Shown here in pieces: positions 29,101 through 63,729 of a stretch of 64,000 bases of DNA. The stretch spans positions 496,001 to 560,000 of the forward strand of contig JAHDVF020001018.1 of the NCBI GenBank assembly GCA_022606425.2, written 5' to 3'. The stretch's first letter is position 1. Every line of letters starts with the position of its first letter. The position numbers and the translations under genes are program-made. Source of the stretch: Lepidostoma basale. Lineage: Eukaryota; Arthropoda; Insecta; Trichoptera; Lepidostomatidae. Below the pieces are notes generated by a model that worked only from the letters and a program-made list of their open reading frames with translations, was not told the DNA's origin and searched no databases.

Positions 29101-32100
29101 ATTAGTAACTGCGCTATAATGGTTTGAAGAGGAAGGAGAAATCACCTCAATTCAATTGATTTTATAAAAACGAATCCGTGCTTTAGCTGCAAAAAAAGAC
29201 GAGAATTTCTTATTAGTCTTTTTTTATATGCTTTGTATATACAATACTATTATAACTTTTTCAAAAAATTTAATTAAATATCAAACATGTTTCGGACAAC
29301 CGGTCCTTCCTCAGTGATATTATAAAGACACATATTTAAAATATTATAAAATTGTTTACAAATTTTATCAGTTTTGAAAAAAATACTCAAAATCAGCCAA
29401 AACTGATCATAAATATTTGTAAACAATTTTATAATATTTTAAATATGTATCTTTATAATATCACTGATGAAAGACCGGTTGTCCGAAACATGTCTGATAT
29501 TTAATTTAATTTGTTTTAAAAGTTAGTGTTGTATATCATCATCGGCTGTCCCTCGTGTCCGAGGAAGACTGTCCTTCACGGTTGTGGGTCCACATGTGAC
29601 TATATAGCGTTGTATATACAAAGTATATAAAAAAGAAAAAGACAAATACTCGTAAAACATCGACAACACAGAGTATGGCGAACATAGAAGAGAATTTCTT
29701 GTTAAAAAAAAAACCTCTAATTATTTCTCCAGTACTGTAGAGTAATGTAAGCCATTTTATGTACATATGCTATATACTCGTACATACAAGTACCTGTATT
29801 TGTTTTCCCAGTAAAATTTATAATTTTAATAATCAATAATTGAGCCAAGAAAAAAAAATCTATTTACCTACACCTTAGTTTGCTAAAAGAATTAGCGCCT
29901 TTTTGATCCGGAACACCTCCGGTCCTAATTATACCGGATAAACCAAGTTCTACTGTATGTTTATTGTTTAAATCACGAATTACATTCGTCGTCAGGTTAT
30001 TTAGAATACATTCATAGCTCAAATATAATATTTATTTATTTATTTTAGGGTAACAAACAGCGAATGAGCATATATATAAAAATACACAAAGAAGTACTCA
30101 AATAAGGCCAATTACATGTTTAAAAATATAAATGAATGAACAGAGTTAACATTATAGACTTATGAAACGAGATTTAACTAAACTAAAATCAAGATAAAAC
30201 TAACTAAGGTAATAGTATAAAAATTAACAAAAAGATAATAATAATAATACAAGTAAAGGAATATTACATTATTGCACTATACACACCGAAAAGTTGTTGC
30301 AAATATTTTTTTTAAATCGAGTGTTTAGGTGGAAAACATCGATTGCATTAAAGGATTTGTTATAAGTGTCATATATCCGGTACATTGCCGCGCTCTGAGC
30401 GTAATTGGTGCGATAAGCAGGAAGGTGGAATACTTGGCTCGCGGTGTGTCTTGTACGAAACATAGGGGTATTAATGGTCAATTTGCTAAGAAGTTCGGAG
30501 TTATCAATTCTGAAATGTATGATTTTGTGAAGTAGCATCATATCGTTTAGTGTTCGTCTATCTTGGAGAGAGTCTAAGGATAATATATAATCTATAACAA
30601 GAAACGCACGAGTGGGAGTAGCACAATAACATCCTCATAAGGGAGATAGCTTACACTTATAAAAATACTAATAATATTGAAAACGAAAAGAATTGCTTAC
30701 CATAGTCAAGACAACGTTTTTCCCCGCTATGATTGACTTCTTCCAAAACCATCGGTCTCGGCACCCCATTCTTCAATCTTATTGTATCACCTATAGACCA
30801 GTAGGAACCAAAGATTTTCTCTGAGTTCCTCAAGGTGCTGTACTTTGAAGAAATACTTCGCAGGGTATGGTATTTGCTATCTGCAGTCGCCACAGTATCG
30901 ATTGTTCCAGTTGTACTCCTCAATGTATGCGTTTTAGAAATATCCCCGTTAGACGCACTGCAGTCGGCTTTATCGCTCGAAAGTATTTCCTCGCTCTTGC
31001 TTGTTTGGACAACCCCTTCAAATCTGTGATAAAAATAATTTAATTAACTAACTAACCATCACGCCGTCTCCCCTAAATGGTAGGCAGAAAGAATGGACTG
31101 CCACACTTCAACCGATGTGGCACTCCATCTTTCTCTTTTCGCCCCGCAAGAGATGCGGTGTGATGGGTTGCGAACCTCATCGCCACCAATAGGCATCTCC
31201 CGCGCACATTTCGATCGTCCAACGTCCACAAAATAAAATAAAATTACAAAATAAAAATAATTTAACACATTATGTTCTTTTATATGGTGCACTTGTCATC
31301 AATTTTATGTCATAATTTAATTATTAATCCCAAAAGATTTTTTTTGAACTTCCGTTAGAATAACTTATTTAGTGATGTGACATTATTAAAAATAATTTAA
31401 AAACACTTTTGTTCTTTTTACACCACTTTATTTTTAGAGCGTTTGTCATTTCTAATCACTGTTTTTCCCACCTTTGTTATATTTTTTTTTGTAAAATTGT
31501 CAACAGATTCCGCATACTTAATTGTAACTATAACTAATCACAATAATGAGTTTTTTGACGTATAATTATTACAACTGTTATTTTAATTAACTGTAGGTAA
31601 TTAGGTACCTAACTCAACTCCAGCAAGAACTTCAAAATTCTATCAAAGAAATTATTCAAATTGACATTGGAACAAATGCACATAAGGGTTCGAAAAATCA
31701 CGAAAATTAATTTTAACAGTTGTCGAAACTCTCCACATGAACGAAAAAATTGGTGTAACACCTGATAATGCCAACATCTTTTGCCGAAATAAAAAAAAAA
31801 TTAAAAATTGTAATATCATAACAGCGTTTAAATATCAACAGTTGTAAATAGTTTTATTATATTCATTTCTATTTCATTTTATTCGAATCTCCAAGAATAA
31901 GACCTATAATGACATATGGAATAGAAACGAGAGCTGACACCATCAGAACAAAAAGTCTCCTAAGAACCACAGAAATGAAGACTCTCCGATCCGTTGCGGG
32001 AACGACACTCCGAGACAAAATAAGAAATTCTGAAATAAGAAAGATCTGCAATGTAGAAGATGTCGTGCGATGGGGAAGACTAAGAAGACGCTACTGGAGA

Positions 32101-35100
32101 GATGTGTAAAAAGCATGTTCTGAAAGAGTGATAAATATAGCCTCAAAAAAGTACCAACAGGAAATCGACCTGCAGGAAGACCACCTAAAAGATGGCGAGA
32201 CAGTTGGACATATGCATCCCAGGAACAGGCTCCGAGAAATAACAGGACACAGTCCTAAATAAAGCAGAAGAAGAAGAAGAATAAGATTTTTATTCTACCG
32301 AGTATCGATCGTCTGGTGGCAGAATAAAAATAAATACATTAAAAATAATTAATTGCAATGAACTTCGTGTCGTGATAAACCAAAGTTCAGCTTACCCCAT
32401 TGCTTCGTTATCTAAACTACAGATGAATGCTTCCACAACACATTGTTCGGCCATGTTCAACTTGGCAGTCAGTCTATTCTTCTTATTGGCATGAAAACTT
32501 TTCCATTTATCTCTTTCCCGGGCGTCTTCCGGTAGGCTTAGATCGAATTTCATGTCCTCTCCATTCGATTTTGGGAAAACTAACCTTAACACTACACAAA
32601 ATATAAAAAATAAATTAATAATCATCACATAAAAAGTATGCATGCGAAATGATCTGATGATGAATGTTAATAAGTCAAAGGTAATGATTTTTGAAAAGGA
32701 AGAAACCACGACAGTCTGCAACATTAGCGTGAATGGTGAAAATTTGGAGCAAGTAGTTGAGTTCGTGTATTTAGGTAGTATGTTTACAAGAGATGGGCGA
32801 GTGGAGAGGGATATTGAAAGAAGGGTTGGGGCAGGCAACAAAGTGAATGGTGCACTTAAAGTTGTCATCGCAAACAAAAACCTATAAAAAAAGCTAGAAT
32901 GGCAGTGCACAATGGTGTTCTTCTACCGACCCTTATGTATGGAAGCGAAGCATGGAACTGGCAAAAGAAGGATGAAAGTAGAATACATGCAGTTGAAATG
33001 AGATCTCTTAGAAGAATGTGTGGATACTCTGTGTATGATAGAGTGCCGAATGAAAATATAAGAAGTGAATGCGGTGCGAATGATAGTGTCATGAACAAAA
33101 TAATGAAAGGATCATTAAGATGGTTTGGACATATGGAAAGAATGAATGAAGAAAGAATGGTAAAAAAATTATATGTTAATGATGTAAATGGAACCAGAAA
33201 TAGAGGAAGACCGAGGAAAACGTGGCACGATCAAATAAATCAAATATTGAATGTCGGCCATGTGAGGAGTCAGAGAAATCGACGCGCGTGCATGACACGA
33301 TGTATGAATGTTGAGGAAGCGAGAGAAATATGTCAGGAAAGAAAAGTGTGGCAGTCCATTCTTTCTGCCTACCCCTTCGGGGAGACGGCGTGATGGTTAG
33401 TTAGTTAATTAGTTTTAAAAATGATTTCATCAATTTGGTCACAACTCAAATTTGTATTTTTTTAAATTATTTGTAAATTACATAGTACAATTATATGTAA
33501 TTGGCTTTCGTGGTTGAATTAATGCACTGCTACAACTATTACACTTAATATCTTGTAACTCTTTTCCATTAAATAATTTAACCTTGCATTTTGTCGCTGT
33601 TTACACAATGCATGGGAAACTTTCAATTAAAAGTGGGATGAAGTGAAAACACGAGTGCTTCTTTTTGCAAGTGTATTTTAAATGTCTTTATGCCCTGTAT
33701 CTAATATGCCTTTATGTATGCCTTTATCTAATATGCCCTGTATCATCGATAAAAATAATGTAGGTCACTACCAAAAAAATAATTGGATTTCTAGAAAACG
33801 GACGTTTTCATCAATAATAAATACGTAATATGAATTTATTGTTTCTCGAACAATGATGTAAAACTCCATATTAAATAATTAATACGAATGAAAACGCCAG
33901 TTTTCTAGAAGTTTTATTATATTTTATGGGAATGACATGTTTCGCCCTTCTAAGGCATTATCAAATATAATAAAACTTCTAGAAAACTGACGTTTTCATT
34001 CGTATTAATTACGTAATATGAAGTTTAACATCGTTGTTCAAGAAACTTAATATAAGTAAGTAACAAATGACATTCGAAAATCTAAGTAAGGCGAAACATG
34101 CCACTCTCACTCTCCCAGTCTCTTATAATATCATAGAACTACGATTTCATCAATATAAAATTCTTAATATATTATTCACATACTTGTTTGTCTGATTTAA
34201 ACTTACCAGTTCCAGATTCCGTAACTGTTTCTAAAGTATCCAACATTTTTTCTGCCCATTGCCAACCCTTCGACGCCGCTTCGACTAGTCCCTGCGCTGG
34301 ACTAATACTTCCGTCATGAACTAATTTAGCAAAAGATGTCAAAGCATCAAATTCCTTATTACAAATTCTCGTCTTGAATTCCTCAAGATGCCAGCTGTTT
34401 TCGTGAGAAGTCACAAACAGCAGCTCCAAATAAGGTTTTAATACAGGTGAGAGGTATTTTTTATCTTCGTCGACAGCTTTGTACAGCCACTTTAACAAAG
34501 TTCTTATAAGTATGCAATCGTCAGTCAGGTCTTCTTTCTGCGTATCTGAATCTCTTCGAACTGCGTCAATTAAATACGTAGCAGAAGCGTCGTAACAGCT
34601 TTTGAGTTTGTGGCGTTTGAGCGTATCTTTGGAAGAAGCTTTCGGGGTGTTTGATGTTCTTTTTAAGTCTTTGTTAGGCAGTTCATCAAATATACCACCT
34701 GATACGTGAGTTTTAAGGAAATAGTCTCTAGCTTGATCCAATATTATGGCTAGCAGGTGGATCAGATCTTCAATTGGATCTTGGGGTTGAATTATAGTCG
34801 TTGAAAGTCCGCCTTGAAACCATTCGTTGGAATCCTAAAATAAATAATCACACGTTTTAGACAACTTCAATGATATTAACTAAGAATTCAGTACGGACGT
34901 AATGGTTTTAATTCAATGTCTCGTGCTGTGCTTTTCTTTGTTATTCATTGACTTCAAGTAATATTTATTACATTAGTTTTATATATTCAAAAAATCTTAG
35001 TGAATACATTCATCTGCGCTCTACTATCTGCATAAAGTAGAATTTAGTGTTCTAAATTACGAATTTAAAAAAAATCACACATTCACAAATTGTATAAATC

Positions 35101-38100
35101 TCGTACGCTATCCTAACCTCCTATACAATAACAAAAAATATTAATATTGGTTAGAGAAATTTTTCCATACGGTTCGTCGTAAAAAATGAAAAAAATAATA
35201 AATAAAAGTACCCATTTAAATAAAATCTGGACTAGAAATTCTACAGCGAGCTACTGAAACAAGTCGGAACTGAAGAACAAGTTGAATAAGACCACTTTTT
35301 TTTCATTATTTACTCGTAAATAATATTTCTAACACATTCATTCCACTATTATCATATTCTACACACCTTCAAGTTGGAATAGGAACTTCATTGTGATCCA
35401 TTATTATAATTTCTCTCGCAGGTGTGCTCTCAGAGAGTGTTCAAATATTTTGGTCGCATAGCCCTGAGAGATCAGAACCTTGAAAGGTTTCTAATAACGG
35501 TCAAAGTAGAAGAAAAGCGACCATTCGGACGGCCACTGACCCGCTGGTACAATCAAATCGGGGCACTGACTGGCCTCTTCACAGCTGCAGCCTGAAGATG
35601 ACGGAATCGTATGACCGTGGTGGATGGTTCTTCTTATTCTTCTTCCTCAGCCTATTCCCGTCCACTCCTGAACAAAGGCCTTCTCCATTCGCTTCCATGT
35701 CACTCTGTCCTGTGCAGACTGCATCTAGGTTATTCCGACGTGTCTGTTCAGATCATCCTTCCACCGTAGTTGCGGTCGCCCTGCACTTCTCTTTGCCGTC
35801 CACGGTCTCCAAGTTAGCAGTCTTCTTTTCCACTTTTCATCTGAGCTTCTGGCTACGTGACCTGCCCACTGCCATTTTAGAGTCGCCACCCGGTGGATGA
35901 TGTCAGTGACCTTTGTTTTTTTTTTCTCACCGTATCGTTTCTGACTCTAGGCTTAATCTTTACATGGTGAATGGTTATCGGGATGAAAACGACTCTCAGT
36001 CATGAAGAAAACGACTATGAAGAGACGAGAGAGCGATGGTTTGCATTTATCAAAATGAAATTCGAATTATTCACGAAATTTTGTTTTTGAACTTACTTAC
36101 TAAGTGTGCATTATTAAGATTCACCTGTATAACAACCTGCCTTGCAGTTAGCAGCCCCCTCGCCGCCGTAGCTAGGTAGGCGAGCTGCCTGGGCGAGTAG
36201 GGCGCCGCTCCAGACCCGGCGCCTGCCAGCCGCCCTCCTCGCGTGCCCCCGGCAGGCGTCGTCTCCTGCAGCAGCAGCGCCCAGCGAGTCACCAGGGCGG
36301 CCTCCAAACGCGAGCGGCCCCATGCAACATCTTCATCTACAATGAAAAGCCACCATCTAAATTATATAACTAACTAACTAACTAACCATCACGCCGTCTC
36401 CCCAAAAGGGTAGGCAGAAAGAATGGACTGCCACACTTTAATCGATGCGGCACTCCATCCTTCTCTTTTCGCCATCGCGAGAGACGCGGTGTGATGGGTT
36501 GCGAACCTCATCGCCACCAACAGGCATCTCCCGCGCACACTTGGATCGTTCAACGTCTACATAAAAAAATCTAAAACAAATTATCTGAAATACAACGATA
36601 TCAAATAAAATAACAAAGACAAATAATTGAACACATATTGTTACTTTAGATGGTCAGCTGGACGATCCGGACATTTGGGTTTTTTTCATTTTTATTCCAC
36701 GTTATCCACTGGTTTTTTTTTAATTTACTGTAATTAGGCACTTAAAACAATCCAACACCAGCAAGAACTTCAAAATATTATTGAAGAATTTATTCAAATT
36801 GTCATTGGATCAAATGAAAAATTTCTTTTTATATTTTTAAATTATATCAAAACATAAATAGCCAAAAGCCCGAATATCGTCAAGAAAGATTACGAGAATA
36901 TTTTGAATACAAGAGAGCAAGAGAGGAATACTCCGATTCTCTCAGAAAGTTTTTCGAAATACAATGCGCAAGCCCAAAAACGTTTCTGATTTATTTATTG
37001 TTTCTTGAATAATGATAGAAGACCCCATATAAAATTATTAATATGTATGAAAAAACGATAGTTTTCAAGGAGTTTTATTATTTATGTATGACATGTATCG
37101 CCCTTCTAAGGCATCAAACATTTGATGATGCCTTAGAAGGGCGAAACATGCCATACATAAATATTATAATAAAACTCCTTGAAAACTATAGTTTTTTCAT
37201 ACATATTAATAAGTTTCTGATTTATTTAGAAATTTGTTCTGATTATTGTTGTATGAAAATAGTGTAGAAAACAAAAAGAGAACAATAAAGGGTAGTTTAT
37301 TGTAAAAAATTTAACATGTTTAAAAAAAAAAATTCCATTAAAAGTTCAAACTTATAACGTAAAGCTGTAAATTACTGTGAACCGCGTATTTTACTGTAAA
37401 AAATGTTTTTAAATGATAGAAAATCTTTACTTCGGTGAATTTTTCACGGGATGTAACTAGTTATATTATTAATTATGTACGATCATAATATCCTTCAGGA
37501 GCAAGGAAGATTCCTCCACATATGGTATTACTATTATATAACGATTGCACCCGGCGCCCCTGGAAACGACGGTCAAGCCTTCAAGTGGCAAAAGAATAGG
37601 AGAGATAACCCCATTTGCAGGGCCACCCCTTTAAAACTAGAACGCCATTGACACTTTTTTGCAATGAGCCAGAAAAAATAATAGTCGTCAAATCAAGAAG
37701 ACAGTTGGAAGATATCAAGAAAAAACTGTCAGGTTTTCACATTATTAATAATATATGTACCTACCTATCTATATTCATGTTTATACTGCCAGAATAATTA
37801 TAGTCTGCAAATATTTGCTTCCATATTTTGATGACACACAAAATAGTTTACAAGGGGATTGCTAAACACTCAGCAAATTATGGTATTGATGTCATTTTAA
37901 TTCCATAGAAAAATATATTTAAAAAACTAACCTTATGCGATACGTTTTGTCACTCCAATACACGTTGCCAATTAGCCGTCATTTCACGACAATTAAAATT
38001 CAATACTTATGTTACAATTATACTTATTTAATTTAAAAAAAAAACTGTTTCAATTTCTCGTGATTGCGCAATAAAACGATAATTATTGAAAACTAATAAT

Positions 38101-41100
38101 AAAAATAGCTAGCACTTATAATGTTATGAATAAGTCGAATTGAAAAGTGTCATGGCGGATGGCTAACTACAAGTGTACTGAGTCTACCAATAGTGATAAA
38201 GAAGAAGAAGAATAAATACCTGTATGTTGCAATTAATACTGTGAAAAATAAGTGACGGCAACAATTAAAATGTTTACCGTTGGCCATCTGCGTCGCCTGC
38301 GTGTGCATCCTGCAGAGGAATCCTACAAGACACGCCGCGTCCCCTCTCCAATCCCTCTCCCCCACCCTCGCTCCTCTCCACACAGACAGCTTGACGATGT
38401 CACAGCCAGGGAAGAAATAACTTCTTCCACTCTTAGCCATCAGCTGACCTAAGATTCTGTAACGATTTAGGGAATTATTTAATGATACTTGAACGACGAA
38501 GGTGCATAGGAACAAGCAAACTCAAGTAAGGAAAAGATAATAATAAAAAATTGGATGGTCCATTGTTTTGGCCGAAACACTATGATATTTTAACAATTTA
38601 TAACTGTTAATTCAAAAAGTTTGTTTTATATCACAATTGTATTTATTTTACTTTACAACAGCTGTTTCATCAACCAATGTTGACATCATCAAGTGTTTCA
38701 TTTATTTTAGTGTTAATGACGGCAACCTGATGATGTCAACATTAGTTGATGAAACTGCTGTCGTAAAGTAAAATAAATACAATTGTGATATAAAACAAAG
38801 TTTTTGAATTGACAGTTATAAATTGGATGATTTACAGAGCGCCATTTTTCTGAATTAATCATCTCAAGAGGGCTGTATACTCAAACTTTTTTTAGTATTA
38901 CGCATGTATCGATCTCTACATATGTGCGAAATTGTTTGGACAGACAACTTACGTATCTATGATGCAGAGAACATGGTGCGCGAGGTGCGTGGAAGACCAG
39001 GCGCGCAGATCTCCTGCTGGACCACGAGCTGCTGGCCTCTCTAGCCTCCACAGTAGAGCCTCCTCTACCATGTAGCGGCTCACGGCTCTTAAGGGTGGCT
39101 GAAATGGCATCAATAAAATATTTTTTATTTAAACTAACTAACTAACCATCACGCCGTTTCTCCGAAGGGGTAGGTAGAAAGAATGAACTGCCACACTTTT
39201 TTTTCCTGATATATTTCTCTCGCTTCCTCGACATTCATACATCGTGTCATGCACGCGCGTCGATTTCTCTGACTCGGAGTTTGCTGATCGAAGCCTAGAT
39301 TGCCGCAAGTTAGGGCTATCAGCAACACAAAGTTCAGATATACAAGATTATATTATAATTATACATTTGATAATATGTTTTCTCTAAACCCCTTGTTGAA
39401 ATTGTTTTAATGTCAGATTGTCAGACTCACTTGTCCGTTTTCTCTGAGGTGTTTAAGAACTGCTCCCAGGGCTTCTGAAACTCGAGCCGCGGCCTCCCCT
39501 CGAGATCCTAGTAAGGACCGGGCCCCTTCGGCCCAGAGCTGCCAGCCCGCACAGCGCTCTGACCACTGCACGCCAGTCGCGGGGGCTCCACCAACGATGT
39601 AGAAGCCCTGAATATAAAGAGTATTTTTAAAGACCGTGCCACACTGTTTGAAACAAGCTCTCCACAGGGGTGACCTTGGTGGAGAGCTGTGGAGCCCACG
39701 GTTGGTGTAGTGTCCACATACTGTTGTAAACAAGCTCTCCACATGTGGAATGCGTGTTTAAACGGTGGATCCACACGCATACTATGCGCATCCGTTCACA
39801 AAGTTAGTTGAAGGTCAAACGAATTTTGGTTTCAAGCAAGTGTCTACACAGTTTTAAACCGCCGGTGGAGACCGAAGTGGAGAGATTGTTTAAAACAGTG
39901 TGGAACGGCTTTAATGGATAATAAGTATATAGGAATTAATGCTAGACTTTTATTTCTGCTATTAATTAATTGGTTGGAGGCGAAACTGCACGATTTTGTG
40001 TCCTTCAATGTTCATATTATGTTGTCTTGTACATTAATAAATAAAATGAAAACTTCTTCTTCTTCTTTTGTCATATCCAGTTTCTTTGTTCGTTATCACT
40101 TCTGAAAAGGCTCCACTCTCCTTATTCCAGTCCAGTCTTTAGCACCTATGATTAATCATAATCGTTTGAGCATCCAAGACGTTTGTCTTCTCAAAAGAAC
40201 ACGTCGTCCTTCAACCTTACACATTATCATAAGTTGGAATAGCTCATAACTGTCACCACGCAAGATGTGACCCATATTGAAAAATTTTAGGGACCTTATT
40301 ATATTTTTATATTCTCCACTGCAATGAGTTCTCTTCAAGATTTCTGGTTTCCTGACCAAATTTGTTCCAAGTTATTTAAATCATTCTTCCGTATAATCAT
40401 ATTTCGGATGCTTTCAGGCATAATAAATGTTCACAGAATATCAAATCAAATCAAATCAATTTATTTCATCAATAGACCTTACAAAATTAAGGTTTGAGGA
40501 ATCTATTGAGAAAAAGTCAATCAAATTTGTTTAAACTTCGACAGCGTCAGCATACACTGTTTCATCCCCCAATATGCAGAATCAACGTTCATCTGGTGAT
40601 GGAAATGGGGAGAGCATTCAAACTGCCTAACATTATCACTATTAGATTATTAATTAAAATGAAACAATGTTTAAGGTATAAAGTAGTAGCGGTGTAGAAT
40701 TCCCGTGACAATAAAATGGCGATATATTAGCTACCTATCACATATCACTAGAACCAATATAATAGCTAAAATAAATTGTATATGGTAATTGGGTTCAAAC
40801 GACCTGTTGTATACACAAAATAAAAATAATAAAAAATAAAAATATTAATGGGAGAACAACATTTTAAACATTCTTATCAACAGCTCTATATATTGTACCA
40901 TAATCTTTGGTTACAACAATGCATATTCCTGAAATCATTTCGTTTATTGATGTTATTTTTTTAGTATTATATGCTGAAGAAAAAGTTTATTTTTTGTATA
41001 ATTACCGTTTGTGCTGCACTATAGAAGAGCAAGGCATCTGGATGGCCCAATGGGGCCCTGTTAGGGAAGTCGCTTCCAGCCGGCCACCCACTAAAGGGCA

Positions 41101-44100
41101 CCGCTAGAAGCAGCTTGGCTTCCGCCCCCTGCGCCCCCAGAACCCCTCCAGCCATGCGGACCCGAACCCAGGGAGACCCCTCCACTATCGCCACACGGTA
41201 TCCTCGCTGATCGGCCTCGCAGTCTTCGTGAGCTGCAATACATTTAATTAAATACAATCGATTTACTTTTTACGTACCTTCTACAACAACATTTGCATAT
41301 TTATTGATTCTTGAAGTTTTTCATCTTCTTCTTCTTCTTTTTCTTCTTCTTCTTCTTCGTTTTCTTCTTCTTCTTCTTCTTCGTTTTCTTCTTCTTCTTC
41401 TTCTTCTTCTTCTTATTCTTCTTTTTCTTCTTATTCTTCTTCGTTTTCTTCTTCTTCTTCTTCTTCTTCTTCTTCTTCTTCTTCTTCTTCTTTCTCTTCT
41501 TCTTCTCCGTATTTTTCTTGTTCTTCTTCTTCAGCCTATTCTCGTGCACTCCTGGACACTCGTCCGAGCTTCTGGCTACGTGACCTGTCCATTGCCACTT
41601 TAGAGTCGCTACCCGGTGGATGATGTCAGTGACCTTTGTTTTTTCTCTCAACGAATCGTTTCTGACTCTGTCTCTAAGGCTTATTCCTAACATGGCTCTT
41701 TGGGTCACTCATATTTCTCGGCACTTTGTTTGGACAATGTTACAGTTTCGAGGCCATAAGAAGCAACTGGCAGCACACAAAATTATTTATTTTCATTTAA
41801 AATTCCATAATAAATAATTAATCCGAATGAAAACGTCTGTTTTATAGAAGGGAATTGGATGTTTCGTCTTGCTAAGACATTATCAAATGTGTATAAATAA
41901 AACATTAGCTATGCGAAACATGTCATTCCTATTGCTTAAGAAACAATAAATAGTTCAATGTTAAGTAATATTTCAGGTACAAGCTACAAGTGACTACTAG
42001 CAGTCAAATCTACCCAAAGCAAATGTGCTAGTTGATGGCACGTTAAAATAAAGATGGCGAAATCGAGTCGACGCCATTTTTGTACGAGAATAGAACTTCT
42101 ATCTAATTATTACCATCTCCATAGTGACACTGCTGCTCTGAGGGCAAATCCCTCAGGTGTGGGTATACCGTAGGCGGCACTAAAAGCCCTGGGTCACCGC
42201 CTTCAGGGCACTCAGAACTCCCAGCAGCCCAAGCCAAGACTTCCACCCATCTCTCTACAACTTTATCCCTGAAATAAATATTAAATAACAATTAATACGA
42301 ATGAAAACGCCGCTTTCCTAGAAGTTTTTTTTATAATCAATGGAAATGACATGTTTCGCCTTTCTTAGGCATTACCAAATGTCCCATAAATTATAATATA
42401 ACTTCTATAAAACAGACGTTTTTATTCGTATTAATTATTTAATATGGAGTTTTACACCATTATTTAAGAAACACAATTACTAAATAATACACTTAAACAT
42501 GAAAATTAAATATTTTTTAGGATATTTTTCATAAACTTATGTTTCGTCATAATCTGATATAAAAAATATGTAAACGAAATCGAACTAAACAAAACAATAT
42601 AAATTGAAAAAATTATGCGTTAGCAAAAAGGCGGGAAATAGTTTTCACTTCCAAAAGCTCTACTTATATAAATAAGTGAATTTATCACTCTTCACTTGGA
42701 ATGAGTATTTATATTATTATAAACTGTTAAATAAAAAAACATTGTTATATGTATCAAAATTGTATTTTTACTGTTTCGTTATTTAATAATGTATAACACT
42801 GTTAATATCCATTTTTTTTTTTAAAGATTGAAATCAATAAATAGGATTAGAATTTGTTTTACAATCTTCAACTTTGATTTACTCGTACAAAATATTTTTC
42901 ACAACACAATATATTATCATTTATGATATAGTATAAACTCTAAATATTTAATATAAAAAGTGGATACTAACGGTGTTGTGGAAATTTTTCTACCAAATTA
43001 AAAATGGAATTCCACAGTGTTAACGCCTTAACATCATATTAAAATCATTTCCATTTTTAAAATTTAAAACTTAAAGCCGTGCCACACTGTTTTAAACAAG
43101 CTCTCCACATCGGTCTCCACCGGCGGTTTAAAACTGTGTAGACACTTGTTTGAAATCAAAATTCGTTTGACCTTCAACAACCTTTGTGGACGGACGCGCA
43201 TAGATGCGTGTTGTAAACACGCATTCCACATGTTGGGCTCCACATTCCACCAATGTCACCCTTGTGGAGAGCTTGTTTCAAACAGTGTGGCACGGCCTTT
43301 ATTCTCAATGGTGTTAAGATTTTTAATTATTTTTACCGATTTTAAATAAACCGCATTTGTGAACAGGTATCCAACAAAGAAACCTTTGTTTTAATGGCAA
43401 CACTTAATTAAAAATGATATATTGTAGTTACCTTCTCAAGAAGCCGCTCTCTGTGAGGAAGTCCTCCCAGAGTCGCGTGTCCTCGGGGCGCAGGCGCGCG
43501 CAGCCCGGGGGTCCCTCCGCCACCGCGCAGTGCCCCTTCAAGGTTTCCATAACTACCAGGTACTCCAGAGAACGGGATTTGATCTGCAAGTCATAAATAC
43601 ACGTAAAAAAATGATTGCAATAGTCCATGCCTCTATTCAAATAATCTTATATATACAAATTAATGTTTGTGTGTTCGTTCCCTATGCGTTCACGCATCGT
43701 TCATCCGACTGAGATGAAGCTTTGTACAGTTGTTGTTGCCAATATTGCCCTTTCAACTTGGAGCCGATAAAGAATTGGAAAATAATGAAAAGGGGCATTA
43801 GTTAATATGTGAAGTAAGTATATGTTAACGATGCAAATGGTAAACTCCAGGTGTTTATAAATAGGTGCCTTCACTCAATATTCAAAATCTATTGGCCCCA
43901 AACGGTGTCAAATGCCGTTCTCTGGACTATGGCAGGCGAAAAGCCAATTAGAGAACAAGTCGCTAGACGCAAATGGCAGTGGATCGTTCACACTCTGAGA
44001 CAAAACCCAGCCTGCATCGCTCAGGGCGCACTAGACTGGTCCCCTATGGGGGAAAGAGAAAGCGAGCGACAAAAAGAAGAAGAAGAACCATCAAGTCGTC

Positions 44101-50404: not shown

Positions 50405-50642
50405 TAATATGTATGAAAAAACGATAGTTTTTAAGGAGTTTTATTATAATATTTATGTATGACATGTTTCGCCCTTCTAAGGCATTATCAAATGTGATAA
50501 AGCCTTTGATAATGCCTTAGAAGGGCGAAACATGTCATACATAAATATTATAATAAAACTCCTTGAAAAGTATCGGGTTTTTTTCATACATATTAATAAT
50601 TTAATATGGAGTTTTACATCATTGTTCAAGAAACAATAAAAA
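50405..50642. repeat. Foldback element, family P
   Basis: Two head-to-head cores around 50480-50530 and symmetric arms ending ATATGGAGTTTTACATCATT. Very close to the 37005-37207 copy. Confidence 0.83.
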
Positions 50643-50774
50643 AGATATTTTGTATATATTTTTTTTGTTTTCATTATCAACTAGTCTAATTTAGAATTGT
50701 ATCACCAATACAGCTTTTTTAATTATTTTTTCGCATAATGATAAATAAAAGTAAACATATGTAGTAAACATGAT

Positions 50775-50885
50775 ATGTTTCGCTATGTTTAGGCATTATC
50801 AAATTTTTATATTGTTTAAACATTTGATAATACCTTAGCAAGGCGAAATATGTTATTCTCATTAATAAGTAATAAAACTTCTATT
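50775..50885. repeat. Foldback core pair, family P relative
   Basis: TGATATGTTTCGCTATGTTT and AATACCTTAGCAAGGCGAAA face each other around a short loop. Confidence 0.72.
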
Positions 50886-53660: not shown

Positions 53661-53764
53661 AATAAATAAAATAAATATTTTTTTTGTACGCAAATTTTTA
53701 AATATCTAAATAAAACATTTAATCGTTTATTATGTGAATGCTTGGTTTAGTATATTTGAAATTC

Positions 53765-54240
53765 TTATTGAAATTATATTTTATTTCATATACGCATGTT
53801 GAAAGTAGAATAAATGCAGTAGAAATGGGATCTCTAAGACGAATCTGTGGCAAATCTGTATATGATAGAGTGACAAATGCAAGTACAAGAAGTGAATGTG
53901 GTGCGAATGAAAGTGTTATGAACAAAATAAGGAAAGGATCATTAAGATGGTTTGGACACATGGAAAGAATGAGTGAAGACAGAATGGTAAAGAAGGTATA
54001 TGTAAACGGCGTGAACGGAGCTAGAAATAGAGGAAGGCCGAGGAAAACGTGGCACGATCAAATCAATCAAATATTGAATGTCGGTCACGTGAGGAGTCGG
54101 AAAAATCGACGTGCGTGCATGACAAGATGTATGAATGTAGAGGAATCGAGAGACGTAAGTCAGGACAGAACAGTGTGGCGTTCCATTCTTTCTGCCTACC
54201 CCTCCGGGGAGACGGCGTGATGGTAAGTTAGTTAGTCAAA
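53765..54240 (+). pseudogene. RTE-like LINE 3' fragment, family A, open frame
   Basis: An uninterrupted frame carries ESRINAVEMGSLRRICGKS, SLRWFGHMERMSEDRM, a GRPRKTWHDQINQ block and ends AYPSGETA then TGA, with a GTTAGTTAGT tail. The 5' truncation point lies at the ESRIN codons, about 53795. Confidence 0.88.
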
Positions 54241-54585: not shown

Positions 54586-54815
54586 AAAGCTTCGCTTACA
54601 TACAAATCAAACTAAGGATTAATATAGATTGGTTTGATAAAACAAAAATAAAGTAGTGAATTTCAAGTAGAAAGGTGTTTTTTAATTATTTTTTATGACG
54701 CCTAACCACTAATAAAGTGCTTCATATAAAAGTAAAGAATATAACGATTATATATTTTTCTTTCTTTGTAACAATACTTTATTTTTACATACAAATAAAA
54801 TTTTATTAATTTACA

Positions 54816-54848
54816 ATCATGTTTCGGGACACAGTAGCCCTTCATCAG
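54816..54848 (-). ncRNA. Hammerhead-like motif, fifth family
   Basis: TTACA/TGTAA stem I, CTGATGA, extra A, stem II GGG/CCC, GAAAC, AT, GAT. The cleavage triplet has one change (GAT for GTC). Confidence 0.45.
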
Positions 54849-56702: not shown

Positions 56703-56847
56703 TATATAATTTTATTTGTTTAATAAAAGTGTTGTATATACAAAGTGTATAAAAAAGAAAAATTGAAAAAAAAACATCTTAACAATCCAAAATATGGCGT
56801 ATATAGAAGAAAAATAAATAAATGAATATATAGGAAAGAAAACGACG

Positions 56848-57879: not shown

Positions 57880-57990
57880 ATGTCAAAATTGTCGCTATGA
57901 GCTGTTTCACCAACTGATTTTGGCATTATCGACATGTTGATTGGAACATCTGATGATGCCGACATGGTTTGGCAAAACAGCTATCGTGAA
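57880..57990. repeat. Foldback with decayed hammerhead-like cores, third family
   Basis: The right core (57950-57985) is CTGATGA, T, GCCGAC/GTTTGGC, then AAAAC instead of GAAAC, AGCTATC. The left core on the minus strand has lost CTGATGA. Confidence 0.65.
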
Positions 57991-58269
57991 AATATCAGAA
58001 AAAATCGATTAAATAAATTGTGATATTACAACAATGTTTCAAATTAAACAGTTGATGTTGTTGAAATACTATAGTGTTTCCCCCAAAAAATTTCCCAAAA
58101 AAAATTATTATGTTGTTTTAGGAAATATGCTAGATAAATAAAATCATACAAGAAGAAAAAACATTATTATAATTTGTAAAAATGTATATTATTGAATTCC
58201 ATACATTTGAATTCGAAAAATGAACAGATAATATAGTTCAAAAAAAGTACCTACTTAAATTATGTTTAT

Positions 58270-58600
58270 AGCAGTCCACTAAGAGGTGGACTCGTACATA
58301 AAATTAATATCGCATTGGCAAATGATTAAAATACACTTGTTCCTACGTACAGAAGGTCCGATTTGAAATAATGCAAACACAATGACCGAAATTGGACATT
58401 GTTCAACGCTTTTCATTAGGCGAGGCGGCTGGACAATGAGACCAGAGCAGTTAGCTCTTACCAAGCATCCGGCCAATACAATTGCCGTTCTCATTAACTA
58501 CGTATAATAAACAGGTAGGTATATATACTTGTACCACATTATGTATACATACTTACAAGTACAAAATTCATATATTTCAAAAATCATATAACTTACTTAA
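58270..58600 (-). other. Short minus-strand open frame of unknown nature
   Basis: 71 codons from 58494, starting MRTAIVLAGCL, with a GTAAG right after the GCTTG codons. It could be a short first exon with a hydrophobic start, but nothing in frame supports it. Confidence 0.15.
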
Positions 58601-58604
58601 CCAA

Positions 58605-58985
58605 TAATAACATATGGCGTTGAAGCAAGGGCAGACACAGTAAGGACCAAACAAGTTTTGAGGACTTCCGAAATGAAGACACAGAGGACGATAGCAGGCA
58701 AGACACTGAGGGATCGCGTGAGGAACACCAGAATAACATAGATATGTGAGGTTGAGGATATTATTAGATAGAGCAGACAGCGAAAAGGGGACTGGTACGG
58801 TCATGTTCAAAATGGACACCACCAGACTCCCCTACATTGCATTGCATAATCAACCTCATGGGACTCGCCCTCGTGGAAGACCTCCTGAAAGATGGAAGGA
58901 CAGCCGGGAATCTACCTCACAGGAGGAGCAACACTCTGGAGAACAGACCACATAGGTCTACAATAAGGAAAAAGAAGAAGAAGAT
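58605..58985 (+). pseudogene. RTE-like LINE fragment, family F
   Basis: YGVEARADTVRTKQVLRTSE and KTLRDRVRN match the 31900 copy. A second part encodes GTRPRGRPPERWKDS. AAGAAGAAG tail at 58973-58983. Confidence 0.8.
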
Positions 58986-59059
58986 ATAACTTACTTGTCA
59001 GGGTGTCTGAAAAATCTGATCTGGAAGAATTACCAAATGCGTATTGACAGCACGGTCAG

Positions 59060-59282
59060 AATTTATAAAATATGCGTGAGACCTATCATGACGTATGCTG
59101 TCGAGACGCGGGCGACAATTTACGAACCAAGGGTCTGCTAAGAATTTCTGAAATAAAGGTTCTAAGATCCATTAGGTACTGGAATAACTCTCCGAGTCGT
59201 GTCCGTAACGCAGACATCAGAAAAACTTGCGTAATAGAGGACATCGTTCGGAGGAGTACATCAAGAAGAAGATACTGATGTT
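59060..59282 (+). pseudogene. RTE-like LINE fragment, family F
   Basis: Encodes MTYAVETRA and RNADIRKTCVIEDIVRRSTS across two frames; the 3' end is missing. Confidence 0.75.
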
Positions 59283-59434
59283 TAATACATGATGTTTAAC
59301 AATGAAATCCATACTTTTTTTTTGCACAATTACTTATATGTGCAGTAAAGTCATGACAATTGACAACTATTATTGAAACCGACTCTAGCGCCATCTCTCG
59401 GTGAATCATATAAACTGAAGGAATCAAAATGATA

Positions 59435-60465
59435 TTGCGAAGGTGATAAACTTCTCGCGATTTCTTTTATTTGCCGATGATCTGAAATTATTCCTAGAAA
59501 TTAACAATCCCGACGACTGTCTTCGCCTCCAGCCTGACATTGATAATATTGTTAACTGGAGTCACAGTAATAAAATGTACTTCAATGTCTCTAAGTGCGC
59601 TATGCTATCGTTTACTAGAGCATTGAGAACTGTGTATTATAGATACACAATGAACAACCAGCAACTAACACACGTATCTACGATCAAGGATCTTGGGATC
59701 ATTTATGAGAGTAGGCTGACTTTTCGTGCACATATCGAGAGGATTTGTGACATTGCACTGAAGATGTTGGGCTTCATCATTCGGACCGGAAGAGTTTTCA
59801 GAAATCCCAATGTGCTCAGAGTCCTATACAACGCCGTTGGTTCAGAGCAGACTCGAAAGTGGTTCTGTGATATGGAGTCCTCACGAGGCGAGATATTCCG
59901 TTATGCTGGAGAGAGTTCAGAAAAAATTTCTGAGGTATCTCTACATGAGGGAGTATGGTAGTTATCCGTGGCTCTATCCCACGGCATTTCTTTTAGGAAT
60001 GCTCGGAACCAATTCTTTACAGCTTCGAAGAGATGGACATCTCATAACCCATTTCTTTAAATTAATCAGGGGATATTTCGAGAACTCGGCCGTGCTAGAG
60101 GGTGTTGGTCTTTTTGTCCCTGATAGATTTCTCCGACAGCGACAGCACAGATTGTTTTACCAACCGGCCACCAGAACCAATCTGCCTCTGGTGACACCGG
60201 TGGGAAGAGCAATTAGTCTGCTGAACGCGGTCTCCTCGGAGATCGACGTCTTTTATATTAGTGAAGGTACGTTCAGGGGACAAATACTCTTGACTTTAGA
60301 AAGTATGTTGTCTTCCTAATGTCTAACCATCTCTAATGCGTTCATGGTACTTTGTTGTATTTTTATAATATTTTACCTGTACTCAATAGATGCCTTAAAC
60401 ATTTTCCTGTTTGTAATGTCTTTTGAGTTAATAAACTGATTTGATTTGATTTGATTTGAAAAATG
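59435..60465 (+). pseudogene. Jockey-like LINE reverse transcriptase fragment, best copy
   Basis: Two overlapping frames cover about 290 residues. FLLFADDLKLFLEINNPDDC holds the FADD catalytic box. STIKDLGIIYESRLTFRAHI and FLRYLYMREYGSYPWLYP follow, then PDRFLRQRQHRLFYQPATRT and GRAISLLNAVSSEIDVF. One frameshift near 59850 separates the frames; the domain upstream of FADD is missing. Ends with CTCAATAGATGCC and a (GATTT)n tail. Confidence 0.9.
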
Positions 60466-60529
60466 ATGCACATTTTGAGTCCTTCAATTAACGAAACTTC
60501 AAAATAACAATAGGAGCAACCTTTTGGCG

Positions 60530-60855
60530 TGGATGAGACCATAATGTTACATGATATTATAATATGTTACTTTTATTTTAACTTTTAATTTTTTTTTATT
60601 TTTTACTACTATTATTATGTTTAACTCTCAATCATTTTGTTTGACCATATTTTGCCTTAGCTTAAATTCAATTAACTGTTTATTGTATTTGTGGTAGCAT
60701 GTAATTGGCTTTATTTATTATTTTTCTTAATGTTTCTTAATTAATATATTGATATCGCTGTATGCTGCCCTTACTGAATTAATAAATCGCCCTTGAGGTG
60801 ATTACATCACAAAAACGGCGCTTTAAAAGTTAGCATATTATTATTATTATTAAAC
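60530..60855 (+). pseudogene. LINE 3' UTR with (ATT)n tail
   Basis: Non-coding; the end AAATCGCCCTTGAGGTGATT, AAAACGGCGCTTTAAAA is followed by (ATT)n. A short match lies at 22215-22260, so it is a dispersed repeat. Confidence 0.6.
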
Positions 60856-61074
60856 AATCATAAACCGATTTCTCCTTGGAATTATTAGAATCAAACTCTT
60901 TAATTTTTATAAACATTTTCTGCACTTTCATTTGCTTTTCTTTTTTTAACTGCCAATCACTTATACTGCTGACCGGTTTCGATCAACAGAAAAATTAATC
61001 AGAAAAATAACTACAGTTTTATGAAATCAAGTAGTAATCATGTGTAATCACAAATTTAATGGTAATTAATTCTA

Positions 61075-61440
61075 CTGTGTATGATACAGTGTCGAATGAA
61101 AATATAAGAAGTGAATGAGGTGCTAATAAAAGTGTTATAACAGAAGATGGTTTGGACACATGGAAATAATGAATAAAGAAATAATGGTAAAAAAGTATAT
61201 GTTTATGATGTAAATGGAACTAGAAATAGAGGAATTCCAAGGAAAACGTGGACGATCAAACAAATCAAATATTGAACGTCGGCCGCGTGAAAAGTCTGAG
61301 AAATTGACGTGCGTGCATGACGCGATGTATGAATGTTGAGGAAGCGAGAGAAGTGTGTCAGGAGAGAAAAGTGTGGCAGTCCTTTATTTCAGCCTATCCC
61401 TTCGGGGAGACGGCGTGATGGTTAGTTAGTTAGTTAGTTA
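61075..61440 (+). pseudogene. RTE-like LINE 3' fragment, family A
   Basis: From the codons for YDTVSNENIRSE to a tail of four TTAG-type units. Several small deletions, for example in the MNKIMK region. Confidence 0.85.
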
Positions 61441-61444
61441 AAAT

Positions 61445-62499
61445 CAATAATACAATGTGTATTTTCGACACTTGGTCAAACGAAATGTACAAATACTAGA
61501 CAAAAAAATATCGATAAAAACAAGATTTTTTAAAGATTAAATTATGAAATTTAATAAAAACATGTAAAAATAAGTCTATCTCAATGATCCAGTTTATAAG
61601 TAAATTTTTTTTACAAATTTCAGAGTTTTTTTTAAGAAGTTTCTGTTAGATATTGCTAGTTTTTTTTAGCTAGGTTGACTTTCTAGCTTTTAAATGAGAC
61701 TACTTTAAAGAAAATACGCCGCTTACTTGAAGAGAGAAAAAAATAAAAAACATATGACGAGTTTTTCAATTTAAAAAAATTAATGCGTCCTTATTTCTTA
61801 AGTAGATAACTTTAAAAAAAAACGCATTTTCATCGATATTTTTTTCTAATGTTCGCACATTTTGCTTTGATCAAGTGTCGAATATACACATTGTATACAA
61901 ATGGTCCAAAATATTTTTAATATTGCAAAAATAGAGAGATAATTTTATTTTATTGTATATTTAATTTTGTTTTATATTGTGATATATCGTTTGGGTAACA
62001 GTAATATAAAAAGTCATATTGCATATATTTATGACACACTGAACTCACCATGGTGAAAATATTGACTACCTGAAGTCAATCAAAATTGTAACTTTAAAAA
62101 ATATAGTACACGTAATAGAAATTTAAGAACTTTATATTTCGTCTTGATTTATTATTTTCGAAAAAAAAAATATCAAAAAAGCGTTTTACTAAAAGTTCTC
62201 CACTACATCTACAATACATGACGTCAGAAAAGTTTCACTTCAACTGAATCCTCCTGGGAAAGTGTGACCTCACACCCTCCGTGTCGGAGGCCTTCAATTA
62301 TAGTTGCTTGCAATATCTATGATGCTTGTAGAAGGGTGCGTTCCATTCTTATATAAAATAAAACAAAGCCATAAAGTCCCGATATTTTTTTACGCTGAAC
62401 CATAGTTTACTATTCAACATATATAATGCGAATCGTTTGCAAACATTTTCAAGGGTTGGAGAATTTTTCTGTATTTTTTTTTAAATAACATTAAAAAAT
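61445..62499. other. No gene; AT-rich
   Basis: The flanks 61460-61500 and 61850-61900 share TTTCGACACTTG / CAAGTGTCGAATATACACA, TTGTATAC in inverted form, so this may be another foldback of about 450 nt. The interior is AT-rich and unopened. Confidence 0.5.
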
Positions 62500-62620
62500 A
62501 TATTTATACCACGTGACGAATCGGTGAAATCGGCGTGCATGCATGACATGATTTATGAATGTTAAGGAATCGAGAAAGGTATGTCAAGAAAGAACAGTGT
62601 GGTGGTCCAACCTTTTTTCT
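62500..62620 (+). pseudogene. RTE-like LINE scrap, family A
   Basis: About 110 nt matching the region RRACMTRCMNVEE to VWWSN. It shares a distinctive GTGAAATCGGCGTGCATGCA variant with the copy at 63095-63380, so the two are close relatives. Confidence 0.75.
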
Positions 62621-63094
62621 TATATTTTTAACATCCACCGCGAGAATTCATTTAAAAACATTAGTATTTTTTTTTAAATCTGTCTTAGGCATGCTTGTAG
62701 GTACATAAAAACAGAGAATAAGCATAACTTTTAACCCCCATTGTTTGACTGACTTCATTTGCAGTAAAAAAAAGATCTCCAATTGCGGTTTTCAACATTT
62801 TACAGCTCAGACAGAGTCATCGTGATATTAAGTACAATTTAGTAGTAAAGTAACCTAAGTACACGTAAATAGGTTTATTCGGTAACTTCAAATATGAACT
62901 GCAATTGTAGTTTGAAACCAATGTTTTTTACTTCAAATGTAGTCAGTCACACTATAAGCGTTAAATGAACAATATGATTTTTTTAAGTATTTACTTATAC
63001 TCTTATATACAATAATATAGTCAATGTACCATTACAATAATCATGTTGAAACTAATTAAATTTATTCAACCATTTTATATATTCATAAAATATT

Positions 63095-63380
63095 CAAACG
63101 GGGTCATTAAGATGGTTTTCACACATGGGAGGAAGAACGAAGAAATTATATGTTAACGATGTGAACGGAACAAGAAATACAGGAAGACCGAGAAAGCGTG
63201 GCACGATCATATCAATTAAATATTAATGGTCGACCGCGTGACGGATCGGTGAAATCGGCGTGCATGCATGACACGATTTATGATTGTTAAAGAATCGAGA
63301 GAAGTGTGCCAGGAAAGAACAGTGTGGTGGTCCAATATTTTTTTCTATTAATTCAGGAAGATGGTGTGATAGTTATTTAG
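63095..63380 (+). pseudogene. RTE-like LINE 3' fragment, family A
   Basis: Covers the SLRWF region to a diverged 3' end (GGTGTGATAGTTATTTAG). It shows the same substitutions as 62500-62620. Confidence 0.8.
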
Positions 63381-63549
63381 TACGTTAATATATTTAAAAA
63401 ATCACAGTCGTTTAGTATTGTATTTTATTTTATTCAATGTATTTTACCATGTACGAGTATTCTAGTGTTTACCTTATTTGTCTTTTTCTTTTTTATATAC
63501 TTTGTATATACAACACTAACTTTAAAAAAAAAACTAAAATTACATATCA

Positions 63550-63580
63550 GACATGTTTCGGACAACCGGTCCTTCTTCAG
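63550..63580 (-). ncRNA. Hammerhead-like ribozyme motif, best copy
   Basis: On the minus strand: CTGAAGA, extra A, GGAC-CGGTT-GTCC (4 perfect pairs), GAAAC, AT, GTC. Flanks ATGTATCA and TGATATGT form an 8-bp stem I with two G-T pairs. All core bases fit the hammerhead consensus except the one extra base before stem II. It lies in a one-armed copy of the 29262-29515 element. Confidence 0.62.
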
Positions 63581-63729
63581 TGATACATATTATAAAGATA
63601 CATATTTAAAATATTATAAAATTGTTTACAAATATGATCAGTTTTGACAGATGTTATAAAGATTTATTTTGTAACGTTTATGCTTTTGTTATAACTAATA
63701 TTATGAATCAATTTAAAATTTAAAAGAAT

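What the first reader, a model, noticed from the sequence alone, without database searches (positions are those of the whole stretch)
29262..63660. A hammerhead-ribozyme-like core recurs in at least six foldback families
Independent repeats on both strands share one pattern: CTGANGA, one extra T or A, a 4-6 bp stem, GAAAC, a short self-complementary stem III (ACATGT, ACAGCTGT or ACCGGT), then GTC. Stem II sequences differ between families (GGAC/GTCC, GGAGG/CCTCC, GTCAAC/GTTGAT, GAAGG/CCTTC, GCTCC/GGAGC, GCCTT/AAGGGC), yet pairing is kept, which is covariation and not simple copying. Hammerheads with minimal stem III are known in Penelope-like retroelements and in retrozymes. No Penelope reverse transcriptase or GIY-YIG frame is visible, so these would be non-autonomous relics. 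Motifs outside the given span: 5193, 5396, 8025, 15088, 18125, 19835, 19899, 21921, 25217.
Basis: partly seen in the sequence, partly recalled or inferred. Interest (0 to 1): 0.88.

Follow-up and report, generated by a model that had tools for sequence, protein, structure and literature searches.

The report
Penelope retroelement copies carrying hammerhead-like motifs
The repeated ribozyme-like motifs are real: they are the ends of Penelope-type jumping genes, present in thousands of copies in this animal genome, and the places where young copies end suggest that they were copied from RNA which the ribozyme had not cut.

Summary
CTGANGA...GAAAC occurs 10 times in the window, 0.61 expected; one sub-pattern has 13,970 exact copies in the 769-Mb genome, reversed control 0. 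A covariance model built from genome copies outside the window finds 17 window motifs at E<0.01. Stem II covaries. No Rfam hammerhead matches, even at E<=10.

The motifs belong to pseudo-LTRs of Penelope-like elements (PLEs). The genome holds PLEs with open RT + GIY-YIG frames and such motifs in or beside them. Window 14983-15132 is 99.3% identical to one such end.

The foldbacks look like single insertions: divergent arms, often 9-15 bp target duplications, and a 34-44 bp 'tail' (ATG plus first codons) on exactly one arm in 56 of 56 readable cases from four families. In young copies of two families 27 of 46 arms begin at an initiator-like site at or just upstream of the motif, none at its cleavage site. 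I infer two-ended priming on uncleaved RNA.

PLE hammerheads are known: new member of a known kind. Cleavage was not tested.

The parts
29201..29211 (.). target-site duplication GAGAATTTCTT, left copy
   Evidence: the string occurs at only two places on the + strand of the window, 29201 and 29690
29212..29689 (.). PLE insertion of the GGAC family: divergent arms, left arm without tail, right arm with tail
   Evidence: inverted repeat 29244-29366/29412-29534, 89%; ends read by eye
29284..29314 (-). hammerhead motif, GGAC/GTCC stem II, triplet GTT
   Evidence: R1 match 5.2e-9
29464..29494 (+). hammerhead motif, CTGATGA, outer stem II pair broken (A/C)
   Evidence: R1 match 2.7e-8
29656..29689 (+). 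tail with ATG GCG AAC ATA GAA, the start of a PLE-like reading frame (MANIE)
   Evidence: the same kind of tail in 11 genome insertions and in two P2 copies (L059, L070)
29690..29700 (.). target-site duplication GAGAATTTCTT, right copy
14965..14976 (.). target-site duplication TTTCATAATTTT, left copy
   Evidence: the string also occurs once elsewhere, 24549
14977..15176 (.). PLE insertion of family P1: 14983-15132 is 99.3% identical to the end of an element with an RT/GIY-YIG frame (L039 6160-6309, tail included); 15133-15179 is the tail-less inverted arm, 97.9%
15091..15123 (-). hammerhead-like motif of P1, core CTGTCGA (A6 changed to U)
   Evidence: R1 5.7e-6
15177..15188 (.). target-site duplication TTTCATAATTTT, right copy
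63550..63580 (-). hammerhead motif, GGAC family, single arm
   Evidence: R1 1e-8
18125..18155 (-). hammerhead motif, GGAGG family, in foldback 18077-18224
   Evidence: R1 1.2e-9
21921..21951 (+). hammerhead motif, GGAGG family
   Evidence: R1 1.6e-9
5396..5431 (-). hammerhead motif, GTCAAC/GTTGAT, stem III ACAGCTGT
   Evidence: R1 7e-6
38594..38825 (.). foldback of the GTCAAC family, with R1 matches 38649-38700 (-) and 38719-38770 (+)
   Evidence: no target duplication recognised
19782..19987 (.). foldback with motifs 19835-19870 (-) and 19899-19934 (+), stem II GCCAAC/GTTGGC and TCTAAC/GTTGGC
   Evidence: weak in R1 (0.32 and 0.049)
25217..25251 (-). hammerhead-like motif CCGATGA, GAAGG/CCTTC
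   Evidence: R1 5.9e-5
54815..54848 (-). hammerhead motif, resembles that of family P2 by eye
   Evidence: R1 4.1e-5
8025..8057 (-). decayed hammerhead-like motif, GCTC, resembles family P3 by eye
   Evidence: R1 0.027
5200..5231 (-). hammerhead-like motif in foldback 5144-5338
   Evidence: weak in R1 (0.17)
50416..50581 (.). foldback with two TTGATAA (U3-A8) motifs, stem II GCCTT/AGGGC
33926..33972 (-). TTGATAA motif of the same family
   Evidence: R1 0.0024
   Evidence: R1 1.5e-5
   Evidence: R1 2.1e-4

Best explanation
The motifs are type I hammerheads with a very short palindromic stem III. They sit in the pseudo-LTR (promoter and 5' UTR region) of Penelope-like retroelements. The foldbacks are insertion products: the element's endonuclease cuts both target strands about 9-15 bp apart, and reverse transcriptase extends both DNA ends on sense RNA, starting at two sites 34-44 nt apart near the start codon. 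Each cDNA runs to the RNA 5' end, at or a few nt upstream of the hammerhead, or stops elsewhere, and the two cDNAs are joined head to head. Because a start site lies just behind the RNA 5' end, many products are foldbacks of a few hundred bp that carry one or two hammerheads and no gene. Shown: motif, covariation, association with RT/GIY-YIG frames, geometry, tail rule, target duplications, shared arm starts. Inferred: two-ended priming, the transcription start, and that template RNA was not cleaved. Not shown: any ribozyme activity.
For: Genome counts with zero reversed control. Covariation: 93% of cells paired against 62.6% shuffled, score 0.792 against 0.203, 0 of 500 shuffles each. RVT_1 and GIY-YIG in the 758-codon frame of L039; motifs in its 456-bp inverted arms and beside families P2, P3 and P4. 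Window copy 99.3% identical to a P1 end. Neighbours from one search within 620 bp are all divergent: 7 of 7, 10 of 10, 9 of 9 in three lists of 100. One tail per insertion, 56 of 56 readable. Matching flanks beyond the control maximum in 12 of 16, 12 of 13, 6 of 10. Arm starts at one initiator-like site: 17 of 26, 10 of 20; at the cleavage site 0 of 46.
Against: Rfam finds no hammerhead. Stem I is only 2-5 pairs in several families. P1, whose copies are 92-100% alike, has A6 changed to U, a position where a natural A6C variant cleaved below 0.1 per min (PMC3088659 passage). No transcript data, so the start site is inferred. Matching flanks exceeded the control in only 4 of 9 older P4 and 0 of 13 GGAC insertions (the GGAC query lacked the tail, so its ends were set wrongly; only the window copy was re-read). 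P4 insertions L101 and L106 share one inner junction with the tail on opposite arms, which independent events would not predict. In vitro a related PLE showed no start-site difference between strands (PMC11167929).
Confidence: 0.82

Rival explanations
1. Non-autonomous retrozymes: small hammerhead RNAs that circularise after self-cleavage and are moved by another element's enzymes, as in plants and some metazoans.
For: High copy number, type I hammerheads, and metazoan retrozymes reported in insects among others (PMC7229834, passages).
Against: Those are short tandem repeats. Here copies are inverted pairs, their ends are the start-codon region and an initiator-like site, no arm starts at the cleavage site, and the same ends occur on elements with RT/GIY-YIG frames.
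Confidence: 0.06
2. Foldbacks arise by self-priming: a cDNA folds back and primes its own second strand, or antisense RNA self-primes, as proposed for bdelloid Penelopes (PMC3846280).
For: Head-to-head orientation and many junctions with both arms at the same place: 8 of 13 in P4, 5 of 10 in P3.
Against: A copied arm should carry the same tail as its template arm; here exactly one arm has it in 56 of 56 readable cases. In P1 the two arms mostly stop at very different places, for example q1862 and q2484.
Confidence: 0.12
3. MITE-like DNA elements with terminal inverted repeats that carry the motif by chance.
For: Foldback shape and target duplications.
Against: Arm lengths and junctions vary between copies of one family; outer ends are offset by the tail; ends match RT-encoding elements.
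Confidence: 0.02
4. The motif no longer acts as a ribozyme; the sequence is kept because it is an initiator, a start codon context or the RT binding site. (Not exclusive of the best explanation.)
For: P1 core A6U (10 of 10 distinct held rows); no arm began at the cleavage site; ribozyme mutants did not impair PAc insertion in vitro (PMC11167929).
Against: Stem II covaries, and the 3-8 core pair is changed on both sides together in P4 and in the GCCTT family, as expected if the RNA fold is under selection.
Confidence: 0.3

Closest known systems
Hammerhead ribozymes of Penelope-like elements (Cervera & De la Pena 2014; not held, abstract recalled; described in PMC6155905 passages)
   Same: Minimal type I hammerheads without a proper helix III in the flanking repeats of PLEs; widespread in metazoan genomes (recalled)
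   Different: Here four coding lineages in one genome are tied to their motifs; two variant cores (U3-A8 and A6U)
PAc, Poseidon of Anolis carolinensis (PMC11167929, parts 1-3 of 4 read)
   Same: Hammerhead at the pLTR/ORF junction, extra U after CUGANGA (my reading of the printed template RNA), internal RT start at two sites that define the tail, both DNA strands cleaved and extended, unprocessed RNA used for insertion in vitro
   Different: Here the genome copies show one tail per insertion and templates that reach past the motif
Penelopes of Adineta vaga (PMC3846280, passages)
   Same: Inverted pLTRs, a 31-bp tail on one arm, 8-10 bp target duplications, partial tandem copies
   Different: Low copy number there; the authors favoured self-priming on an antisense template
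Retrozymes (PMC4918200 listing only; PMC7229834 passages)
   Same: Hammerheads in retroelements
   Different: Circular RNA of unit length; direct tandem, not inverted, repeats
Natural U3-A8 hammerheads (PMC3088659, passages)
   Same: Compensated change of the C3-G8 core pair, reported active in vitro
   Different: Here fixed in a PLE family with 1,530 exact copies

Membership tests
Penelope-like elements | One reading frame with RT and GIY-YIG endonuclease | tested here: met
   L039 758 codons: RVT_1 1.4e-13, GIY-YIG 6.6e-5. Met for genome elements; the window copies hold no coding sequence beyond the tail
Penelope-like elements | pLTRs, often with one inverted copy | tested here: met
   456-bp inverted arms, 99%; divergent neighbours
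Penelope-like elements | Tail of about 30-45 bp at one end, made of the first codons | tested here: met
   56 of 56 readable insertions in four families
Penelope-like elements | Target-site duplications | tested here: met
   Both bounded window insertions; 12 of 16, 12 of 13, 6 of 10 and 4 of 9 beyond control; 0 of 13 for GGAC, where ends were set wrongly
Hammerhead ribozyme | Conserved core CUGANGA, GAAA, UH triplet | tested here: met
   CTGANGA in 14 of 20 aligned motifs, GAAA in 19 of 20; exceptions P1 (A6U), P4 and GCCTT (U3-A8), L058, 25217, 19835, 19899; triplet lost in 54815 and 8025
Hammerhead ribozyme | Covarying stem II | tested here: met
   the measure 'pairs with a change on both sides' alone is not above shuffles (4 against 3.1, 92 of 500)
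Hammerhead ribozyme | Match to the Rfam hammerhead models | tested here: not met
   none at E<=10; I take the very short helix III as the reason. Hence 'hammerhead-like' until cleavage is shown
Hammerhead ribozyme | Self-cleavage at the triplet | not testable with these tools
   needs RNA
Retrozyme | Direct tandem repeats cut at the ribozyme, circular RNA | tested here: not met
   inverted pairs and no arm start at the cleavage site; circular RNA itself was not tested

The most novel reading that the evidence does not exclude
PLE integration is obligately two-ended: one reverse transcription starts at the tail site and one at the inner site in every event, on RNA that begins at the pLTR initiator and has not been cut by its own hammerhead. 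The ribozyme would then not make the template but serve another step, such as cutting read-through multimers or removing templates, and the thousands of hammerhead foldbacks are by-products of priming near the RNA 5' end.
Probability: 0.5. Interest if true: 0.68.

Novelty: new member of a known kind. Interest (0 to 1): 0.5.

Why it matters
What the hammerhead does for Penelope elements is open. Thousands of copies in one genome act as a record of the RNAs that were actually inserted, and that record says, in two families, that they reached past the motif. The one-tail rule separates two published ideas on how inverted pLTRs form. Families with standard, U3-A8 and A6U cores in one host make a ready test set.

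Tried and rejected
Rfam at gathering and relaxed thresholds: no hammerhead. A reading in which the transcription start cuts off stem I and so disarms the 5' ribozyme: possible in P4, where A472 lies inside stem I, but P3 starts 15 nt upstream of its core, so it is not general. Treating the foldbacks as fixed-length MITE-like families: junctions vary. Target duplications of the GGAC family with a query that lacked the tail: uninformative. Target duplications of seven other window foldbacks: none recognised by the same test. No PLE coding piece in the window. Literature: eight searches; one search finds 0 papers that hold hammerhead, Penelope and Lepidoptera. I make no claim that the tail rule or the uncleaved-template evidence is unpublished; Cervera 2014, Arkhipova 2017 and Craig 2021 were not held. 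My notebook has slips mended here: the P4 cleavage site is q509/510 (not 511-513), the older P4 set has 6 readable insertions (not 7), and P4 motifs with U3-A8 among held copies are 21 of 23 (not 22 of 22).
Full report
Observation. The pattern CTGANGAN{6,30}GAAAC occurs 10 times in the window, 0.61 expected, 0 of 100 shuffles reach 10. A stricter descriptor with stem II and a palindromic stem III gives 5 against 0 in 200 shuffles, and 4 against 0 when stem I is also required. The whole genome (769 Mb, 1,572 contigs, unnamed) has 9,210 places within two mismatches of the GGAC motif and 13,970 exact matches of CTGANGAN{9,19}GAAACATGTC; the reversed control patterns give 0 in both. Model R1, from 12 genome copies outside the window, finds 17 window matches at E<0.01; several of its seeds are of the same families as window copies, so this is a check of consistency more than an independent discovery. 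Rfam reports no hammerhead at all. The named proteins among the best 120 relatives of the PLE frame come from a moth, a butterfly, beetles and a locust; that the host is a moth or butterfly is inference.

Covariation. In 20 motifs (12 from the window, 8 from elsewhere) stem II pairs form in 91.3% of cells. Over the five pairs tested (four of stem II and the 3-8 core pair) 93% of cells pair against 62.6% in shuffles and 29 cells are changed on both sides against 9.0; no shuffle of 500 reaches either. Two weaker measures: further pair types 14 against 10.6 (11 of 500), pairs with a change on both sides 4 against 3.1 (92 of 500). In a second count on the window and the loci held then, with no stem II filter, 79% of positions pair against 52% (largest shuffle 64%). 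Pair 10.1-11.1 is G-C or G-U in 18 of 20. The extra nucleotide after the core is T in 30, A in 17 and G in 2 of 49 distinct motifs. The same extra U stands in the PAc template RNA printed in PMC11167929 (my reading).

The coding elements. GIY-YIG (PF01541) has 62 matches, 150 of 542 candidates being scored; at least two (L047, L048) are not PLEs. L039 has a 758-codon open frame with RVT_1 and GIY-YIG, framed by 456-bp inverted arms, 99% complementary, each with CTGTCGATGCCAGCGAGCCTGGCGAAACCGGTC. Its 5' part appears to be cut off, since the frame runs into the inverted arm. With this protein 59 of 3,702 candidates were scored and all 59 match; beside P1's own copies there are further families, 38-46% identical, with open frames of up to 873 codons, one of them about 190 kb away on the window's contig, and C308 and C502 hold head-to-head tandem arrays. 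From flanks of 13 of these elements (20 pieces), P2 (CTGAAGA-A-GGGGC..GTCCC) stands beside four and P3 (CTGAGGA-A-GCTCG..GAGC) beside five, and P4 (TTGAAAA-T-GCC..GGC-GAAACAAATTTGTA) beside the other four, read by eye. In window families, 15091-15123 is P1 itself; 54815-54848 resembles P2 and 8025-8057 resembles P3; the GGAC family shares with P2 a tail that reads ATG GCG AAY ATA GAA GAA. For GGAGG, GTCAAC and GAAGG I found no coding partner.

Foldbacks are insertions. In the first 100 listed places of three searches, neighbours within 620 bp are divergent in 7 of 7, 10 of 10 and 9 of 9 cases; between 620 and 4,000 bp there are 4 more divergent pairs and 6 of other orientation. The 620-bp limit was set after seeing the list, the first two lists share at least one pair, and the second mixes families. 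In family P1 16 distinct inverted insertions, the window one included, all have one arm that ends with the tail and one without, and all differ in their inner stops (overlapping loci L014/L037/L045, L030/L034/L044 and the near-identical L039/L040 counted once; the query itself ends at the tail; six further copies, L020/L051, L021, L028, L031, L032 and L046, showed one arm only and are not counted). In GGAC 11 of 11 fetched insertions have one tail, read by eye (in L002 the second arm is a 57-bp piece 269 bp away), and so has the window's. In P4 13 of 13 in the young sample and 6 of 6 readable of 9 in the earlier set (L080, L083, L087 not readable). In P3 9 of 9 readable of 10 (L119 runs off the fetched piece; L127 and L130 are cut as well, and L131, left out by the script's filter, has one tail and an arm 16 nt short). 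Together 56 of 56 readable. Matching flanks exceed the mismatched-control maximum in 12 of 16 P1 (L039 lies in an AT repeat and L017's match is not adjacent), 12 of 13 young P4, 4 of 9 older P4 and 0 of 13 GGAC (wrong ends), and 6 of 10 P3. In the window GAGAATTTCTT frames 29212-29689 and TTTCATAATTTT frames 14977-15176.

Where the cDNAs stop. To avoid picking copies by their motif I searched with pLTR pieces that lie downstream of it. For P4 (40 of 643 candidates scored, 49 matches) I fetched 20 regions covering 31 of the 49; the tandem arrays (C308, C348, C502, C580, C652), C1363, one C927 and one C999 match were left out. Thirteen insertions show both arms: 17 of 26 arm starts fall at q469-473 of L061, 2 at q476, 7 elsewhere. 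The cleavage site lies between q509 and q510; the nearest starts are q496 and q521. A472 stands in TCAGTT, which matches the arthropod initiator (recalled). For P3 (40 of 110 scored, 42 matches, 20 regions fetched) 10 insertions passed: 10 of 20 arm starts fall at q234-239, at A236 in TTAGTT, 15 nt upstream of the core; the nearest to the cleavage site (q282/283) is q276. In P1, a set picked by GIY-YIG and so rich in long copies, 0 of 32 starts lie within 9 nt of the cleavage site (q2695/2696); two (q2708, q2712) lie 12-17 nt behind it and two (q2651, q2654) just in front of the motif. Two families with different distances between start and motif argue against a mere RT stop at the fold. The simplest reading is run-off at the RNA 5' end, on RNA that still held its motif.

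Variant cores. P4 has U3 and A8 in place of C3 and G8: 100 of 100 listed of 1,530 exact places where all four combinations of Y3 and R8 were allowed, and 21 of 23 held P4 motifs, the other two having A3-A8. The GCCTT/AAGGGC family of the window has U3-A8 in 7 of 8 copies and U3-G8 in one. Natural U3-A8 hammerheads are reported, and such variants cleave in vitro (PMC3088659 passage). P1 has U6 in 10 of 10 distinct held rows; a natural A6C ribozyme cleaved below 0.1 per min. If P1 does not cleave, its spread shows that cleavage is not needed for mobility; this is a prediction.

Known and new. PLE hammerheads, inverted pLTRs, tails and internal RT starts are known: PMC6155905 (passages), PMC3846280 (passages), PMC11167929 (parts 1-3 of 4 read). 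In PAc both strands are cut and extended, two RT starts define the tail, and ribozyme mutants do not change insertion in vitro. What I add is the genomic counterpart: one tail per insertion across four families and, in two, templates that reach past the motif. The self-priming idea of PMC3846280 does not predict the one-tail rule; two-ended priming does. Why one start site is used at each end rather than either at random is unexplained.

Limits. No RNA data; no cleavage assay; scored candidates are the best matches, so young copies are over-represented; transcription starts are inferred from DNA; L101 and L106 share a junction with tails on opposite arms and may not be independent.

Noticed in passing
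window 29536-29608: A 73-bp insert inside the right arm of the 29.2-29.7 kb insertion, flanked by an 8-bp repeat GTTGTATA (29528 and 29609); looks like a small DNA element.
   Followed up: partly
L101 and L106 (G000 C473 and C887): Two P4 insertions have the same inner junction (q476, TTATATATTTTTTATAT, q393) but the tail on opposite arms; copying of an already inverted element, or a shared template, is possible. Unexplained.
   Followed up: no
G000:C308:2095637-2108493 and C502:2506-14849: Head-to-head tandem arrays of PLE units about 2.95 kb apart, most with open frames.
   Followed up: partly
window 50453-50862, 37114-37160, 42340-42386, 26377-26423, 33926-33972: A family with core TTGATAA (U3-A8) and stem II GCCTT/AGGGC; stem I is only about two pairs; four of the eight copies are weak in R1 (E 0.024-0.21).
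   Followed up: partly
window 8155-8226: tRNA-Trp gene by ARAGORN close to the motif at 8025-8057; Rfam tRNA score just above its cut-off (32.4 against 29).
   Followed up: no
window 32860-33393 and 53738-54220: Two open frames that share NIRSECGANDSVMNKI / STRSECGANESVMNKI and the stretch after it; probably decayed pieces of one repeated retroelement family.
   Followed up: no
L047 (G000:C102) and L048 (G000:C729): GIY-YIG frames of 623 and 621 codons that look like bacterial UvrC (recalled), perhaps bacterial sequence in the assembly.
   Followed up: no
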